The notes beneath the pieces are model-generated. The model was given only the letters and a program-made list of their open reading frames with translations. It made no database searches and had not been told where the DNA came from. Positions 4,409 through 34,202 of a stretch of 43,811 bases of DNA are shown piece by piece. The number at the start of each line of letters is the position of its first letter. Position 1 is the stretch's first letter. The stretch comes from Spirochaetota bacterium (GTDB lineage Bacteria > Spirochaetota > UBA4802 > UB4802), in NCBI GenBank assembly GCA_040756435.1, contig JBFLZD010000032.1:1-43811 (forward strand). The letters run 5' to 3'. A program made the position numbers and the translations under genes.

Positions 4409-4792
4409 ATGGCAAAGTTATCAGTACAGGAATTGTTGGAAGCAATTGGTAGTTTAACACTTGTTGAAGCGGCTGAACTTGTAAAAGCTATGGAAGAAAA
4501 GTTTGGCATTTCAGCAGCAGCACCAGTTGCAGTAGCAGCAGCACCAGCAGCAGGTGCAGCAGCTGCAGAAGTTGAGGAAAAAACAGAATTTGATGTTATC
4601 CTCACTGGTTTTGGTGATAACAAGATTAATGTTATCAAGGAAGTCAGAGCCATTACCGGTTTAGGTTTAAAAGAAGCCAAAGACCTGGTAGAAGCTGGTG
4701 GCAAGCCAGTCAAGGAAAAGGTTTCCAAGGAAGAAGCCGAGAAGATTAAAAAACAGCTTGAAGAAGCTGGAGCTACTGTCGAGATTAAGTAA
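4409..4792 (+). CDS. rplL: 50S ribosomal protein L7/L12
   Basis: 127 residues in the normal three-part layout: an N-terminal dimerisation domain (to about residue 33), an Ala-rich hinge ([20 protein letters not shown]), and a C-terminal domain that recruits translation GTPases ([18 protein letters not shown]... [12 protein letters not shown]). A strong ribosome-binding site (AAGGAG, about 4397) precedes the ATG. It stands alone between two structured gaps, which would allow separate control of its expression. Confidence 0.97.
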
Positions 4793-4844
4793 CGTTTTAA
4801 ACGTAAAATATCTTGAAAAGATTTTGGTAATACTGTATATTGAA

Positions 4845-4889
4845 AACAGTAGTAGGTTTGGTTGCGATGCAATCAAACCTACTGTTGTT
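4845..4889 (+). ncRNA. 21-bp perfect hairpin between rplL and rpoB, likely transcript processing site
   Basis: Bases 4845-4865 pair without interruption with 4869-4889 (18 Watson-Crick and 3 G-U pairs) around a 3-base GAT loop. The core is GTAGGTTTGGTTGC against GCAATCAAACCTAC. No T run follows. In E. coli the rplL-rpoB gap holds an attenuator and an RNase III site, and this long double-stranded stem in the same place suggests a similar role by inference. The remaining bases to rpoB (4890-5063) are AT-rich with no confident promoter. Confidence 0.75.
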
Positions 4890-5063
4890 GATATTTGTAG
4901 AATTTACTATCATTTTCAGTCTTTTGTATACAATAACAGTGCCCCAAACAGTATGAATAAAACAATAAACGAACAATATATTTTTACAATAATTTTTAAT
5001 CGATTGTCCGATTTTCTTCATATTTTGGCTTATTGTGAATAAATTTTATTTTAGGTGTAAACT

Positions 5064-8000
5064 ATGCAAAAACAACAAAAAGTTATCCGTTTTGGTAAAA
5101 TAAAACCCGGCATTGGATTGCCAAATTTGATCGAAAATCAAACCGAATCGTTTAAATGGTTTTTACAGAAGGATGTAGCCCCTTCCAAAAGGAAAAACCA
5201 GGGTCTTCAGGCAGTGTTTCTTGAAACATTTCCAATAATAAGTCCCAATGATGATATAGAACTGGAATTTGTTGAATATGAGTTGGGTGAGCCAAAATAT
5301 AATGTGCAGGAATGTAAGGAAAGAGATGTTACGTATGCAGCTCCGCTCAAAGCAACAATACGGCTCATTAAGAAGGATACCATGGAAGTCCGTGAGCAGT
5401 CTGTGTATATGGGCGATATACCATTAATGACAGAAAGTGGCACCTTCATTATAAATGGTGCAGAACGTGTTGTGGTAAATCAGTTGCACAGGTCACCGGG
5501 AATCTTCTTTTTCTGGGATGAAGTTGAAAGAATGTACAGTGCCCGGGTAATCCCTGACAGGGGATCATGGCTGGAATTTGAAATGGATGCTAAAGGCCTG
5601 ATAGTTGCTCGTATTGACAGGAAGAAAAAATTCCCTGCAACTATCATTCTTAAAGCATTAGGGTATAATACTAACGAAGAGATAATTAAGCTTTTCTATA
5701 ATACAAAAAAGATAACCCTTACTGAGGAAAAAGATTACGAATCTCTGAAAAATAAACGAGTTGCTTCTGATGTTATTAATCCAGAAACAGGAGAAGTACT
5801 ATTAGAGGCTGGTGAACGAATAACTATTGACTATGTTGATATATTGCGGGATGAGAAGATAAAAGCTGTAGAAGTTATAGAATTCCCAAAGAATAAAGAC
5901 GATGCATATCTCATTACTTCCTTAGAAAAAGACGATTGCAAAAGCTCTGAAGAAGCATTATTGAAATTGCATCAGATGCTTAGACCTGGTGAGCCAACCA
6001 ATATTGACAATGCACGTGAGATATTTAACCGATTATTCTTTGATCCCAGAACATACAGTTTGGGGGGTGTTGGACGCTATAAGATAAATAAGAAGTTTGG
6101 CTTTGATATGAAAGAGGTAAAGGAAGATTACCTCAGAAAAGAAGATATAGTACATACGGTTAAATATTTAATTAACCTTATTGCTGAAGTCGATGGATAT
6201 ATCGTTGATGATATAGACCATTTAGGAAACAGGAGAATACGGCCCGTTGGCGAGCTTATTCAGAATCAGATAAAAATTGGCTTCCAACGAATGGAACGTG
6301 TTATTAAGGAACGTATGACCATACAGGATGTTGATGTGGTCACACCACAGGCGCTCATTAGCATCAAGCCAATTACTGCTGTCATCAATGAATTTTTTGG
6401 TTCCAGCCAGCTATCGCAGTTTATGGACCAGACAAACCCATTGGCAGAGCTAACCCATAAACGGCGGCTTAATGCATTAGGGCCAGGTGGTTTAACTCGT
6501 GAGCGCGCTGGTTTTGAAGTGCGTGATGTTCACCCATCACACTATGGAAGAATGTGTCCAATAGAGACTCCTGAAGGCCCCAATATTGGATTGATCATAT
6601 CGATGAGTACGTATGCACGCATTAATGACTATGGTTTTCTGGAAACTCCCTATAAGGTTGTTGAAAATGGCAGGGTTACTGATAAGGTTGTATATCTTAC
6701 TGCTGATGAAGAGGATAAATATTTTATAGCCCAGGCCAACGCCAAAATAGATGAAAGCGGCAAGTTTGTTGATAACCTCATTCCTTGCCGTCACCGGGGT
6801 GATTTCCCCTATAAACGCCCTGAAGAAATTCAGTATATGGACGTATCACCGGATCAGGTATTTTCAGTTTCAACATGCCTCATTCCGTTCCTGGAACATG
6901 ATGATGCAAACCGTGCACTTATGGGTTCAAATATGCAAAGGCAAGCAGTGCCACTGTTAACGGAAGAAGTTCCGCTGGTAGGTACAGGTATGGAAGGCCC
7001 TGCGGCTATGGATTCAGGTGTTGTGATTAAGGCAAAACGCGCCGGCGAAGTAATATATGCAGATGCAAAAGTTATCAGGGTAAAAACATCAAGCGGCGAG
7101 ATAGATGAATATACTCTCCTGAAGTTTAAACGAACCAATCAGGGCACCTGTTTCAACCAGAAACCAATTGTACGTAAAGGTCAAAAAATAAAAGCAGGTG
7201 ACATCCTGGCTGATGGGCCTGCCACAGACAATGGGAAATTAGCGTTAGGGAAAAACATCCTGGTAGCATTCATGCCATGGATGGGATATAACTTTGAGGA
7301 TGCTATTCTGCTTTCTGAACGCCTGGTATATGATGATATATATACATCATTACATATTGAGCAGTTTGAGATAGAAGCCAGAGAGACAAAGCTTGGAAGG
7401 GAAGTGATAACCCGTGATATTCCCAACCTGAGTGAAAAAGCGTTCAGAGATCTTGATGAAAATGGTATCGTTAGGATGGGTGCTTATGTTGCTCCGGGCG
7501 ATATACTTGTGGGCAAGGTAACTCCTAAGGGAGAGCAGGACCTTACACCTGAATACAAACTGCTGCATTCCATATTTGGTGAAAAAGCGCGTGAGGTGCG
7601 CGATACATCGCTCAGAGTGCCTAATGGTGTTGAGGGTATAGTGATTGATGTGAAGCGTTTTTCGCGTGAGAATGGAGATGAGTTGTCTGCGGGTGTAGAA
7701 GAGCTTGTCAAAGTGTACATTGCTTCAAAAAGGAAGATATCAGTTGGCGACAAGATGGCGGGACGCCACGGTAACAAGGGTGTTATATCAAGGATAGTTC
7801 CTGTATATGATATGCCGTATTTACCTGACGGAACACCGGTTGATATTGTTTTAAATCCACTATCGGTACCATCCCGAATGAATTTGGGACAGCTTCTGGA
7901 AACTGAATTGGGCTGGGCGGCAAAGGAATTAGGATTTATAGCTGAATGCCCTATCTTTGATAGCCCAGAAGAGCAGGAGATACGCGAACTTTTGAAAAAA

Positions 8001-8513
8001 GCAGGTTTGCCAGAATCATCAAAGACTGTCCTGTATAATGGCCAGACAGGTGAGCCTTTTGAAAGTGAGGTTATGGTTGGTTACATTTACATGCTGAAAT
8101 TAGCTCACATGGTTGATGATAAGATTCATGCGCGTTCAACAGGCCCCTATTCACTGGTAACACAGCAGCCATTGGGTGGTAAGGCACAGTTTGGCGGGCA
8201 GCGATTGGGTGAGATGGAAGTATGGGCACTTGAAGCATATGGTGCTGCATACACACTGCAGGAGCTTCTTACGGTGAAATCCGACGATATGTTAGGGCGA
8301 GCACGGATTTATGAAGCGATAGTTAAAGGTATTAACACTACCTCGCCTGGGATTCCGGAGTCATTCAATGTACTGGTTCAGGAATTGCGCGGCCTTGCAC
8401 TGGATGTCAGAATTTATGATGACAATGGTAATGAGATAAATCTCTCTGAATGGAGCGAAGGCTTAAGCAAGCCAAAGAGAAAAATCAAGCTTGAAACGCT
8501 TGAAAATGAGTAA
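5064..8513 (+). CDS. rpoB: DNA-directed RNA polymerase subunit beta
   Basis: 1149 residues, compact and without the large lineage-specific inserts of enterobacterial RpoB. The rifampicin-pocket segment [20 protein letters not shown] then [11 protein letters not shown] is intact, with Asn470 (codon AAT at 6471-6473) where E. coli has Ser531. The [20 protein letters not shown] motif and the active-site [12 protein letters not shown] (residues 895-906) are present. It pairs with RpoC to form the catalytic cleft of RNA polymerase. The gene is separated from rplL by a 271-base gap and from rpoC by 42 bases. Confidence 0.98.
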
Positions 8514-12793: not shown

Positions 12794-12833
12794 GATTAAT
12801 CACTTTCAATTAAAATTTTGAAAGTGGTTAATC
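12794..12833 (+). promoter_or_regulatory. Inverted repeat after rpoC overlapping the rpsL promoter
   Basis: GATTAATCACTTTCAA (12794-12809) pairs with TTGAAAGTGGTTAATC (12818-12833), 16 bp with one G-U, loop of eight bases. It could end or process rpoBC mRNA. Its right arm also contains the -35 hexamer of the downstream promoter, so it could equally be an operator for a dimeric regulator. There is no T run as in a classical terminator. Confidence 0.6.
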
Positions 12834-12846
12834 TGCATAATATAAT
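12818..12846 (+). promoter_or_regulatory. Strong sigma70-type promoter for rpsL-rpsG-fusA
   Basis: TTGAAA (12818-12823), a 17-base spacer, then a perfect TATAAT (12841-12846), 35 bases before the rpsL ATG at 12882. The leader has a strong GAGGAG ribosome-binding site. A second upstream TTGACA (12771-12776) has only a weak -10 partner around 12795. This promoter makes the str genes at least partly independent of rpoBC transcription. Confidence 0.75.
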
Positions 12847-13794: not shown

Positions 13795-13821
13795 AAATAC
13801 CAGGGCATCCCCCTGGTATTT
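13795..13821 (+). terminator. Hairpin between rpsG and fusA, possible attenuator
   Basis: AAATACCAGGG (13795-13805) pairs perfectly with CCCTGGTATTT (13811-13821) around CATCC. Only a short TTT is part of the stem and no longer T run follows, so termination would be partial at best. It lies 34 bases after rpsG and 41 bases before the fusA ATG. Confidence 0.5.
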
Positions 13822-31782: not shown

Positions 31783-32235
31783 ATGAGACACCGTAATAGT
31801 GTTAGAACATTAGGGCGCTCCCATGAGCATAGAAGAGCAATGTTTGCCAATATGGTGACATCGTTGTTTCAGCATGAAAGAATAATTACGACAAAGCAGA
31901 AGGGCAAAGAATTAAAACGGATTGCTGAGCGATTGATAACAAGGGCCAAGGAAAACTTAAGCCTTACGGAAAATGAAGGTGCACGGAAACTCCATAACAA
32001 GCGTGAAGTCATGCGCCTTATTAAGAATGAAGATGTTGTAAAGAAGCTTTTTGATGATATTGCACCACGCTTTGTGACACGCCCGGGTGGTTATACCCGT
32101 ATGTACTTACTTGATAGGCGTGAAGGTGATGCTGCTCAGATGGCAATTGTAGAACTGGTAGTTAAGCCAGAAACAAAGAAAAAAGATAAAAAAGAAGATA
32201 AAAAAGATGAAAATAGCAAAAAAACCACAGCATAA
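31783..32235 (+). CDS. rplQ: 50S ribosomal protein L17 with a lysine-rich tail
   Basis: 150 residues. Core signatures are MRHRNSVRTLGRSHEHRRAM and RLGDAAxMAxxEL-like REGDAAQMAIVELV. Residues from about 127 on form a charged tail (KPETKKKDKKEDKKDENSKK). The last codons and the TAA are part of the operon terminator hairpin, so the very end of the protein is partly dictated by that hairpin. Last gene of the + strand block. Confidence 0.97.
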   Translation: MRHRNSVRTLGRSHEHRRAMFANMVTSLFQHERIITTKQKGKELKRIAERLITRAKENLSLTENEGARKLHNKREVMRLIKNEDVVKKLFDDIAPRFVTRPGGYTRMYLLDRREGDAAQMAIVELVVKPETKKKDKKEDKKDENSKKTTA

Positions 32236-32247
32236 GCTGTGGTTTTT
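32220..32247. terminator. Strong bidirectional terminator containing the rplQ stop codon
   Basis: AAAAACCACAGC (32220-32231) pairs perfectly with GCTGTGGTTTTT (32236-32247) around the loop ATAA. On the + strand five T residues end the stem; on the - strand the run is seven T. The rplQ TAA is 32233-32235, inside the loop. It separates the ribosomal block from the convergent - strand gene that ends at 32258. Confidence 0.9.
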
Positions 32248-32257
32248 AATGTGATAT

Positions 32258-33109
32258 TTATTTTAGTTTTTTCTCCAGGCGAGCTTTCTCAATTGAATGT
32301 ACTAAGCTCATATTGTCATTAGCATCAACTTTAAATTCCTCGGGTATACGGTCATCATAAATAGGATCCAGCTTATTGCTTTCAAGGCCGTATTTACGCT
32401 GTATGGTGTCTAATTGATGTACTTTAACCATTTTGTGAATTTCAATCCCATATTGTTTTGCAAGACGACAAAAATCAATAACTGCAAGATATTGTTTTAT
32501 GATAAATTCAAGCTCATCGTGCTTGATATTTTTTTTGCTTTTTAAGTATATTATATCCTGATTATTATAGATGTTTTTTGCTTCCTGAAGTTTTTTATAG
32601 CCATTTTTGAGATAGCGTTCAATTGTTTCCCTGTCAAAAAAAAGGTGGTATTCTTCAGGGTTATATGGTTTAATTTCTTCAACAGGATTATAGGGTTTTT
32701 GAAAATATTTTTTTAAGGTACTGTTTTTGTCATACTTTATCATAATGTCAAAGGATTGCTTTGAGGTTGAGTCCAGAATCTGCTGAGCCCTGTTAATATA
32801 CAGGGTGGCAAGTGCATCGGTGAGAGTAACCAGTTCCTGTTTTACCTTATAATACTTCTGGTGTGAGCTGTCAAAATTTTGCCCGTAATATTCTTCAGAA
32901 GCATTTTGAAAAAGCGTTTGTATTTCCTGATACTTGTTTTTTGTAGTCTCATCACCAAAGTTTTCAACCATGATGCGAATCTGCCGCAGCAGTGAAAGAG
33001 TAAGGAAATAGTCATTCTGTGCTTTCACGGCAGTAGAAACAGCAAATGATGAAGCCGTGATGATAAGCACTATAATTGTGGAACACAGTATAATTAGATG
33101 CTTATGCAT
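32258..33109 (-). CDS. Exported protein of unknown function
   Basis: 283 residues from the ATG at 33109 (MHKHLIILCST), eight bases after AAGG; an ATG at 33124 lacks a ribosome-binding site and longer frames run into the divergent gene. A signal peptide (IILCSTIIVLIITASSFA) ends near residue 20-29, so the protein is periplasmic or surface-bound. The mature part is charged and mostly helical by appearance, with Tyr- and Lys-rich stretches such as NPVEEIKPYNPEEYHLFF. No family recognised. Convergent to rplQ, divergent from the DUF2225 gene across about 220 bases without an obvious promoter. Confidence 0.75.
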   Translation of the reverse strand: MHKHLIILCSTIIVLIITASSFAVSTAVKAQNDYFLTLSLLRQIRIMVENFGDETTKNKYQEIQTLFQNASEEYYGQNFDSSHQKYYKVKQELVTLTDALATLYINRAQQILDSTSKQSFDIMIKYDKNSTLKKYFQKPYNPVEEIKPYNPEEYHLFFDRETIERYLKNGYKKLQEAKNIYNNQDIIYLKSKKNIKHDELEFIIKQYLAVIDFCRLAKQYGIEIHKMVKVHQLDTIQRKYGLESNKLDPIYDDRIPEEFKVDANDNMSLVHSIEKARLEKKLK

Positions 33110-33326
33110 ATCATTAACCTTCATATGATAGTCTTTTTTATTGTATCGGTAACATATGAAAACTGCTTTATGTATATTTTTATAATAGTAAATGATTTGT
33201 TTATCAGTTACTATCGCCAAAAATTTTAAGCGATAATAATTAATAAAGTAAATATTTGATTGCAAAGATACAGGTGATACTGTTACATGAAAACAATAAC
33301 TGTATTTTTGTTGTGGGGATGAACGT

Positions 33327-34202
33327 ATGGAAAATGAGGATACCAAAAAGAAGATATCATTCAGGCAGAAAAATCCCACCATATGTCCGGTATGTGGGTA
33401 TGAATTTTATCGCGAGGAGATGCTGACGGGTGGTGGCAGGCTTATAGCGGGCAAATTAACCGATGAATTGCGCAGAACCTATGAAAAAAATGAAAAATGG
33501 GGAGTGATATATCCGCTTGCATACGTGGTAACGGTTTGCCCGAGGTGTCTGTATGCAGCGTATCCAAAGGATTTTCCAACACTACAGGCTGATGAAATGC
33601 AGAAGATAAACGCAACTACCAATGCACGAAAACAGTCCATTGATAAGTTTTTTGGCGGGCTTGATTTTAATCAGGATAGGGGATTGTATCATGGGGCTGC
33701 ATCGTATTTGCTGGCAATGGATTGCTATTCGTTCAGGAATAAAAATGTGGCGCCGACGTTTAAAATGGCTGTCAGTGCTATACGGGCAGCATGGCTTTTT
33801 GGGGATCTGGCTAAGTTAGAGCCGGATAAGCCGTATAAAAAGATTTCGGACTTTTTTTACAAAAAGGCGTATGATTATTATTTTAAGGTGGTTGACATCA
33901 TTCAAACTGGTGCTGAACCTGCTGATGCAGCAGGCAACATGGGGCCGGATATTGATAAAAATTGGGGTTATGATGGCATACTGTATATGTGTGCAATACT
34001 TACGTTGAAGGTGGGTGCAAAAGAACCTGATATAAATAAGCGGATTGAAAATTTTGAGCGCACAAAGCGCTATTTAAGCAAACTGTTTGGCAGCGGTAAG
34101 GCGTCAAAAAGTAAGCCGGGCCCGCTTCTTGACATGACCCGTGATTTATATGACAAGATGAACGAGATGCTTGACCAATGGAAAGTCGGGGAACAAGAGT
34201 GA
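33327..34202 (+). CDS. DUF2225 family protein with two CxxC motifs
   Basis: 291 residues, no signal peptide. The N-terminal part carries CPVCGYEF and about 50 residues later CPRCLYAAYP, a probable zinc site, which together identify DUF2225. The C-terminal half is helical with TPR-like spacing (AASYLLAMDCYSF, ILYMCAILTLKVGAKEP). The family is found in spirochaetes and clostridia among others and its function is not known. The start ATG follows GGGGATGAAC. Its TGA overlaps the truA GTG (GTGA at 34199-34202). Confidence 0.85.
   Translation: MENEDTKKKISFRQKNPTICPVCGYEFYREEMLTGGGRLIAGKLTDELRRTYEKNEKWGVIYPLAYVVTVCPRCLYAAYPKDFPTLQADEMQKINATTNARKQSIDKFFGGLDFNQDRGLYHGAASYLLAMDCYSFRNKNVAPTFKMAVSAIRAAWLFGDLAKLEPDKPYKKISDFFYKKAYDYYFKVVDIIQTGAEPADAAGNMGPDIDKNWGYDGILYMCAILTLKVGAKEPDINKRIENFERTKRYLSKLFGSGKASKSKPGPLLDMTRDLYDKMNEMLDQWKVGEQE

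What the first reader, a model, noticed from the sequence alone, without database searches (positions are those of the whole stretch)
4845..4889. 21-bp uninterrupted hairpin at the rplL-rpoB junction
All 21 positions pair, around a 3-base loop. The same junction in E. coli contains an attenuator and an RNase III cleavage site that separates ribosomal from polymerase mRNA. A comparable stem in a distant phylum would be either conserved logic or convergence.
Basis: partly seen in the sequence, partly recalled or inferred. Interest (0 to 1): 0.5.

Follow-up and report, generated by a model that had tools for sequence, protein, structure and literature searches.

The report
Conserved hairpin before polymerase genes
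Between the genes for ribosomal protein L7/L12 and RNA polymerase in an uncultured spirochaete lies an RNA hairpin that most of its relatives preserve; it probably works like the brake known from E. coli that lets only part of the transcription pass on into the polymerase genes.

Summary
The 21-bp hairpin at 4845-4889 is real (-26 kcal/mol, z -8.3) and lies between rplL (4409-4792) and rpoB (5064-8513). It is not a one-off. In the window's order (phylum Spirochaetota), 39 of 46 genomes have a strong match (E at most 8.8e-6), always at this junction; three have no readable junction and four of the 43 readable ones lack it. Both arms vary together (13 of 20 pairs change on both sides; 0 of 500 shuffles). 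Core mismatches are G-U on the sense strand (51 G-U, 0 A-C, 6 other), so selection acts on sense RNA rather than on a DNA operator. No Rfam family matches at its gathering score.

Best reading: a leaky transcription attenuator between ribosomal and polymerase genes, working like E. coli's (Rfam P26) but not a P26 member. A 3' tail is conserved independently of pairing, with Y7-G8-Y9 after the stem as in Gammaproteobacteria (29 of 32 and 19 of 29 tails; 4 of 24 other E. coli terminator-like hairpins). The U-tract is poor in most members, so termination is unproven. RNase III cleavage is possible but not specifically supported. A second order-wide hairpin sits at rpsG-fusA.

The parts
4409..4792 (+). 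rplL, 50S ribosomal protein L7/L12, upstream gene
   Evidence: TIGR00855, 168 bits
4845..4865 (+). 5' arm of the hairpin; order-conserved core AGGTTTGGTTG at 4854-4864
   Evidence: fold; alignment A3 and pair counts
4866..4868 (+). loop GAT; loop length and sequence vary among relatives
4869..4889 (+). 3' arm of the hairpin; conserved core CAATCAAACCT at 4870-4880
4880..4890 (+). conserved 3' tail (order consensus TATTGGYGTYT after the stem's CC); here Y7 = T4886, G8 = G4887, proposed pause/release point (inferred)
   Evidence: alignment columns 53-58 carry 0.81-2.0 bits, their 5' partners 9-14 at most 0.41; YGY at +7 in 29 of 32 tails
4813..4841 (+). promoter-like TTGAAA-17-TATATT directly upstream; its start would fall inside the 5' arm; seen only in the window's own family
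   Evidence: TTGAAA-17-TATAYT in all 5 loci of that family tested
5064..8513 (+). rpoB, RNA polymerase beta subunit, downstream gene
   Evidence: TIGR02013, 1775 bits
13795..13821 (+). possible companion element: sequence-conserved hairpin AAATACCAGG..CCTGGTATTT between rpsG and fusA

Best explanation
The element is a leaky transcription attenuator in the rplKAJL-rpoBC unit. RNA polymerase that has finished rplL makes the hairpin (core AGGUUUGRUUG..CARUCAAACCU), reaches the conserved U-rich tail, and pauses about seven bases past the stem at Y7/G8. There the hairpin releases a fraction of the complexes and the rest read through into rpoBC, so that L7/L12 mRNA is made in excess over polymerase mRNA. 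Shown: position, structure, sense-strand RNA selection, conservation in most of the order, the conserved tail. Inferred: pausing, partial termination, and the ratio of ribosomal to polymerase mRNA.
For: One strong site per matching genome of the order, best on the sense strand just after rplL (places compared with rplL for 38 genomes and with rpoB for G004). Covariation. Core cells: 339 Watson-Crick, 51 G-U, 0 A-C, 6 other, as expected of sense RNA. In all six genomes of genus g12 the spacer is 106-110 nt and the stem ends about 40 nt before rpoB, leaving little room for a separate promoter, so polymerase presumably reads through. E. coli has a hairpin at +39 after rplL, against +29 to +60 in 34 of 40 order loci, with tail CC-TTTTTGC7G8C9T10. 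YGY at +7 occurs in 29 of 32 order tails and 19 of 29 gammaproteobacterial tails against shuffle means of 2.2 and 2.8, and in 4 of 24 other E. coli terminator-like hairpins. Some divergent members have textbook terminator tails: L032 TTTTTGCGTTTTT, L045 TTTTGTTTTTTG. Literature: an attenuator in rplL-rpoB decouples rpl and rpoBC in E. coli (PMC4670729, passage seen); a cyanobacterial rpoBC leader is listed as corresponding to it (PMC1242208, table passage seen).
Against: Most tails lack a proper U-tract: terminator score (formula recalled) 5.8 in the window, negative in 23 of the 40 loci that scored (two of 42 had none; in several, e.g. L019, L027, L028, L034, L039, the best-scoring stem was another one), 35 for E. 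coli. A terminator alone does not explain why the stem sequence is conserved. The YGY comparison has limits: rows in a clade are related, two pairs of order tails are identical, the 24 control hairpins were chosen for U-rich tails, YG without the following Y is also frequent at +4 in the order (26 of 32), and gammaproteobacterial tails are also somewhat enriched at +11 to +13 (14 of 29, mean 8.2). In 42 other bacterial junctions YGY at +7 is 6, shuffled mean 3.2. rpsG-fusA has a similar conserved hairpin although no reduction of fusA is expected. Four of 43 readable junctions lack this family, and G014 has no strong hairpin. No transcript data.
Confidence: 0.6

Rival explanations
1. RNase III processing site: the long duplex is cut after transcription, separating rplL mRNA from rpoBC mRNA, as in the first reader's suggestion.
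For: 21 perfect bp here; an RNase III gene over the curated cut-off in the same genome; lower pairs (columns 10-14) and still lower ones (6-9) pair more than permuted rows, 0.639 against 0.556 (0 of 2000) and 0.521 against 0.433 (13 of 2000); rplL-rpoB is named as an E. coli RNase III substrate (PMC2777011, passage seen).
Against: With one mismatch allowed, 17 of 35 stems span 16 bp or less, and the six of g12 span 14-17; from general knowledge RNase III needs neither the strict stem sequence nor the conserved tail seen here.
Confidence: 0.2
2. Binding site of an RNA-binding regulator, or an end-protecting hairpin: the conserved stem sequence and tail are read by a protein that sets stability or read-through.
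For: Conservation of both arms and tail exceeds what pairing requires; a second, differently worded, conserved hairpin at rpsG-fusA suggests shared machinery; in the window's family a promoter-like sequence would start transcripts inside the 5' arm.
Against: No candidate protein was looked for or found; members with different stems keep place and pairing (L032, L036, L045).
Confidence: 0.12
3. DNA operator palindrome for a transcription factor.
For: Perfect inverted repeat; promoter-like sequence overlaps it in one family.
Against: Loop between half-sites varies from 3 to 14 nt; core mismatches are G-U on one strand; tail conserved on one side only.
Confidence: 0.04

Closest known systems
E. 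coli rplL-rpoB (rpoBC) attenuator / Rfam RF00630 P26
   Same: Same junction, hairpin soon after the rplL stop, similar hairpins in many related Gammaproteobacteria, tail with YGY at +7. That P26 is the attenuator is inferred from its place and fold.
   Different: Different stem sequence (GGCUGGUGAC..GUCACCAGCC); the P26 model has an extra upstream hairpin; E. coli has a U5 tract, the spirochaete element usually has none; the window does not match P26.
Cyanobacterial rpoBC operon leader (Axmann et al. 2005, PMC1242208)
   Same: Comparative genomics found a leader that the authors equate with the E. coli attenuator (table passage).
   Different: Sequence not compared here; the table row carries '-' where some others carry '+', which I take as not detected.
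B. subtilis rplJL L10(L12)4 attenuator
   Same: Transcription attenuation in the same gene cluster (review PMC10931766, passage seen).
   Different: Acts in the rplJL 5'UTR through a kink-turn and alternative folds (same passage); alternative folds were not searched for systematically here.
E. coli rplL-rpoB RNase III site
   Same: Same intergenic region (PMC2777011, passage seen).
   Different: No cleavage evidence here; no unusual structure downstream of the hairpin in the window.

Membership tests
Rfam RF00630 P26 | Match to the covariance model at its gathering score | tested here: not met
   Window 4793-5063 gives no P26 match up to E 10; the E. coli locus L201 does, 74.5 bits
rplL-rpoB transcription attenuator (functional class) | Conserved RNA hairpin between rplL and rpoB, sense strand | tested here: met
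   39 of 46 order genomes, covariation and G-U bias
rplL-rpoB transcription attenuator (functional class) | U-tract directly after the stem, as in intrinsic terminators | tested here: inconclusive
   Imperfect U/G tail; scores -35 to 33 over 40 loci, 23 negative, window 5.8, E. coli 35 (recalled formula)
rplL-rpoB transcription attenuator (functional class) | Partial termination measured by RNA ends or read-through | not testable with these tools
   No transcript data for this lineage
RNase III processing site | Duplex of about two helical turns kept across relatives | tested here: not met
   One mismatch allowed: 16 bp or less in 17 of 35 rows, 19 or more in 10 of 35
RNase III processing site | Host RNase III present | tested here: met
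   TIGR02191, 265.5 bits, G000:C4
RNase III processing site | Staggered cleavage in the stem | not testable with these tools
   Needs RNA-seq or in vitro cleavage
DNA operator | Fixed spacing of half-sites | tested here: not met
   Loop 3-14 nt

The most novel reading that the evidence does not exclude
The rpoBC attenuator is a distinct kind of terminator in which a sequence-conserved hairpin is followed not by a full U-tract but by a conserved pause signal (Y7-G8 about seven bases after the stem). Spirochaetota and Gammaproteobacteria share this design, so polymerase supply is set by a pause-gated, probably polymerase-sensitive brake. In the spirochaete order the same machinery also reads a second hairpin before fusA.
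Probability: 0.25. Interest if true: 0.65.

Novelty: new member of a known kind. Interest (0 to 1): 0.45.

Why it matters
How cells keep ribosomal proteins and RNA polymerase, encoded in one gene cluster, at different levels is known mainly from E. coli (general knowledge). A covarying hairpin with a conserved tail, kept at the same junction through most of a spirochaete order and not matched by Rfam, suggests that the brake is either old or has been reinvented. The conserved bases name exact positions to mutate.

Tried and rejected
A DNA operator was rejected: spacer length varies and core mismatches are G-U on one strand. A mobile repeat was rejected: AGGTTTG-N2-20-CAAACCT lies at two places in the genome, here and once elsewhere with unlike inner bases. 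A generic feature of every junction in the cluster was rejected: at rpoC-rpsL, 28 of 30 loci could be read; the window's hairpin there is in 4 of 5 genomes of the genus, and others have none or unrelated stems (e.g. 15 bp in L184). rpsG-fusA, meant as a further control, turned out to have its own conserved hairpin. A separate downstream structure was not found. Model R1 was not found to reach beyond the order: among 392 phylum genomes, searched with strict filters, four outside the order matched at E <= 0.01, and the 2.5-3.5 kb fetched around them held no rplL or rpoB. A universal YGY tail was not found: in 42 other junctions (duplicates and presumed Gammaproteobacteria removed) YGY at +7 is 6 (shuffled mean 3.2, 178 of 2000 as high), though 19 have it at +6 to +8 (mean 9.1, 0 of 2000). 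Alignment A1 mixed strands and was discarded. Rfam lists weak matches to the hairpin (best mir-2797, 28.5 bits against a gathering score of 74, E 0.0018), which I take as generic-hairpin matches.

Rows dropped. Of 40 order loci, A3 leaves out L003 and L025 (near copies), L020 and L045 (different stems). The tail count leaves out L003, L020, L021, L025, L032, L036, L038, L045 of the 40; by eye L038 and, depending on the anchor, L032 have YGY at +7, while L020, L021, L036 and L045 do not. Within the 32, L030, L041 and L042 lack it. L017 and L033 have no comparable hairpin and were not in A2 or A3. Gammaproteobacteria: 30 best-scoring of 76 genomes with L12 in the class of the Alloalcanivorax genome, plus E. 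coli; 29 of 31 had a stem over the score limit. Six loci present among the others were set aside as gammaproteobacterial; L098's record says only Proteobacteria, and keeping it gives 7 of 43. Survey: 79 loci given, 10 without rpoB in the locus, first 200 nt of the spacer searched. still held two duplicate loci in the other group; one search replaces it.

Papers: passages found by term only, and search listings with the starts of abstracts. That no report on spirochaetes turned up rests and these other searches of the held open-access library.

Full report
Observation. The hairpin is present as described: 21 pairs, loop GAT, -26 kcal/mol, z -8.3, the highest-scoring uninterrupted + strand stem in a scan of the window. 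It starts at the 53rd base after the stop codon of rplL and ends 174 nt before rpoB. NCBIfam names nusG, rplK, rplA, rplJ, rplL, rpoB, rpsL and fusA around it; rpoC and rpsG are named from gene order and alignment with relatives, not scanned. The phylum is Spirochaetota: a genome of the same order (G023) has a contig of the same length, with rplL at the same place, as MIBJ01000062.1, 'Spirochaetes bacterium RBG_16_49_21'.

Relatives. rplL was found in 55 of 59 genomes, the window's included. I read 50 rplL-rpoB junctions, 42 of them in the order. Most members of the order have a hairpin, 29-60 nt after the rplL stop in 34 of 40, with the core AUAGGUUUGRUUG..CARUCAAACCUAU, while flanking columns carry little information. 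Covariance model R1, built from 36 of them, matched 39 of 46 genomes of the order, the weakest best match at E 8.8e-6. These best matches lie at the junction: 38 by comparison with the rplL coordinates, and G004 by rpoB beside it. Weaker matches on the opposite strand at the same place reflect the palindrome; two further places, G004:C58 and G036:C95, appear at E 0.18 and 0.28. Most of the 39 genomes supplied training rows, so their matches are expected. What is informative is that no genome has a second strong site, that G004, not in the training set, was found, and that among 392 phylum genomes only four outside the order matched at E <= 0.01 (best 2.5e-5), with no rplL or rpoB in the stretches fetched. 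Of the seven order genomes without a match, G024, G025 and G032 had no readable rplL; G010 and G012 have other hairpins at the same place, G019 a 6-bp stem, G014 nothing of note.

It is an RNA. Over 36 sequences 88.2% of cells pair (shuffles 79.9, sd 0.7), 13 of 20 pairs have changes on both sides (shuffles 8.3), 62 cells have such changes (shuffles 19.9); none of 500 shuffles reached any measure, and slid structures pair in 26.0-48.3%. The shuffles do not correct for relatedness. In the 11 core pairs there are 339 Watson-Crick cells, 51 G-U, no A-C and 6 others. A-C on this strand would be G-U on the other, so the sense RNA is what is kept. Loop length varies from 3 to 14, which speaks against a DNA operator.

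The tail. Columns 53-58 on the 3' side carry 0.81-2.0 bits, their 5' partners 14-9 at most 0.41; the tail is thus a sequence element, not merely the lower stem. Counting from the stem's CC, the order reads T1 A2 T3 T4 G5 G6 Y7 G8 T9 Y10 T11. The E. coli hairpin is followed by TTTTTGC7G8C9T10, other Gammaproteobacteria have TTTTCCCGTTT, TTTTGCCGTTG and similar. YGY at +7: 29 of 32 (order), 19 of 29 (Gammaproteobacteria), with shuffled means 2.2 and 2.8; 6 of 42 elsewhere, mean 3.2; 4 of 24 other E. coli terminator-like hairpins. Limits: rows within a clade are related, the 24 controls were chosen for U-rich tails, YG also occurs at +4 in 26 of 32 order tails, and Gammaproteobacteria are also somewhat enriched at +11 to +13 (14 of 29, mean 8.2). 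Y at the RNA end with G as the next base is the recalled consensus of elemental pausing; the link is inference.

Mechanism. Place, sense-strand hairpin, tail and the E. coli parallel point to a leaky attenuator. In the six g12 genomes the spacer is 106-110 nt and the stem ends about 40 nt before rpoB, so full termination followed by a separate downstream promoter is unlikely. Against this, the U-tract is poor: the terminator score is negative in 23 of 40 scored loci, and the strict stem sequence is more than a terminator needs. RNase III remains possible: its gene is present, and the lower stem pairs somewhat more than permuted rows, but 17 of 35 stems span 16 bp or less.

Known systems. Rfam P26 (RF00630) covers the E. 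coli hairpin. The 17 other loci given (14 from the class search and its centre, plus L067, L092, L098) did not reach its threshold, nor did L211 and L225, and the window does not match it. A cyanobacterial rpoBC leader was equated with the E. coli attenuator in 2005 (PMC1242208, table passage). In 69 junctions from other bacteria 42 had a hairpin unmatched by 60 shuffles. The kind is therefore known; this family of sequences was not found in Rfam. Common descent with P26 cannot be shown, since the stems differ.

Companion. At rpsG-fusA 27 of 30 loci share TACCAGG..CCTGGTATT (TATCAGG in one) with a loop of variable length. Model R2, trained on 24 of these, matches 39 of 45 genomes of the order at E <= 0.05; 37 of the 39 best matches lie shortly downstream of rpsL on the same contig, G016 and G019 on another contig (compared). 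Several tails resemble the rplL-rpoB tail, e.g. L181 TATTTGGTGTTTTT. Here the core shows no sense-strand bias (3 G-U, 5 A-C, 4 other; lower pairs 12 G-U, 3 A-C, 20 other), so RNA action is less sure than at rplL-rpoB. No Rfam match up to E 1. This is the most useful lead for further work.

Noticed in passing
13795-13821: Sequence-conserved hairpin between rpsG and fusA (AAATACCAGG..CCTGGTATTT, tail rich in T and G); 39 of 45 order genomes match model R2; no Rfam match up to E 1; no sense-strand G-U bias in its core.
   Followed up: partly
12794-12833: 16-bp hairpin between rpoC and rpsL, in 4 of 5 genomes of the genus and not seen in the other readable order loci; its 3' arm holds the TTGAAA of a promoter-like TTGAAA-17-TATAAT at 12818-12846.
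   Followed up: partly
4813-4841: Promoter-like TTGAAA-17-TATAYT just before the hairpin in all 5 loci tested of the window's family, including a diverged genus; the start would fall in the 5' arm.
   Followed up: partly
32220-32247: Symmetric hairpin with runs of A and T, overlapping the end of the + strand ORF 31783-32235 and facing the - strand ORF 32258-33382; probably a two-way terminator, showing that proper U-tracts occur in this genome.
   Followed up: no
L211-L239: Many gammaproteobacterial rplL-rpoB hairpins share a GGCTGGTGGC..GCCACCGGCC type stem and a TTTTNNYGYT tail; none of the 15 of these 29 loci given to Rfam matched P26 (13 at the gathering score, 2 up to E 0.1); the family could be extended.
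   Followed up: partly
1419-1491: tRNA gene upstream of the nusG-rplK cluster.
   Followed up: no
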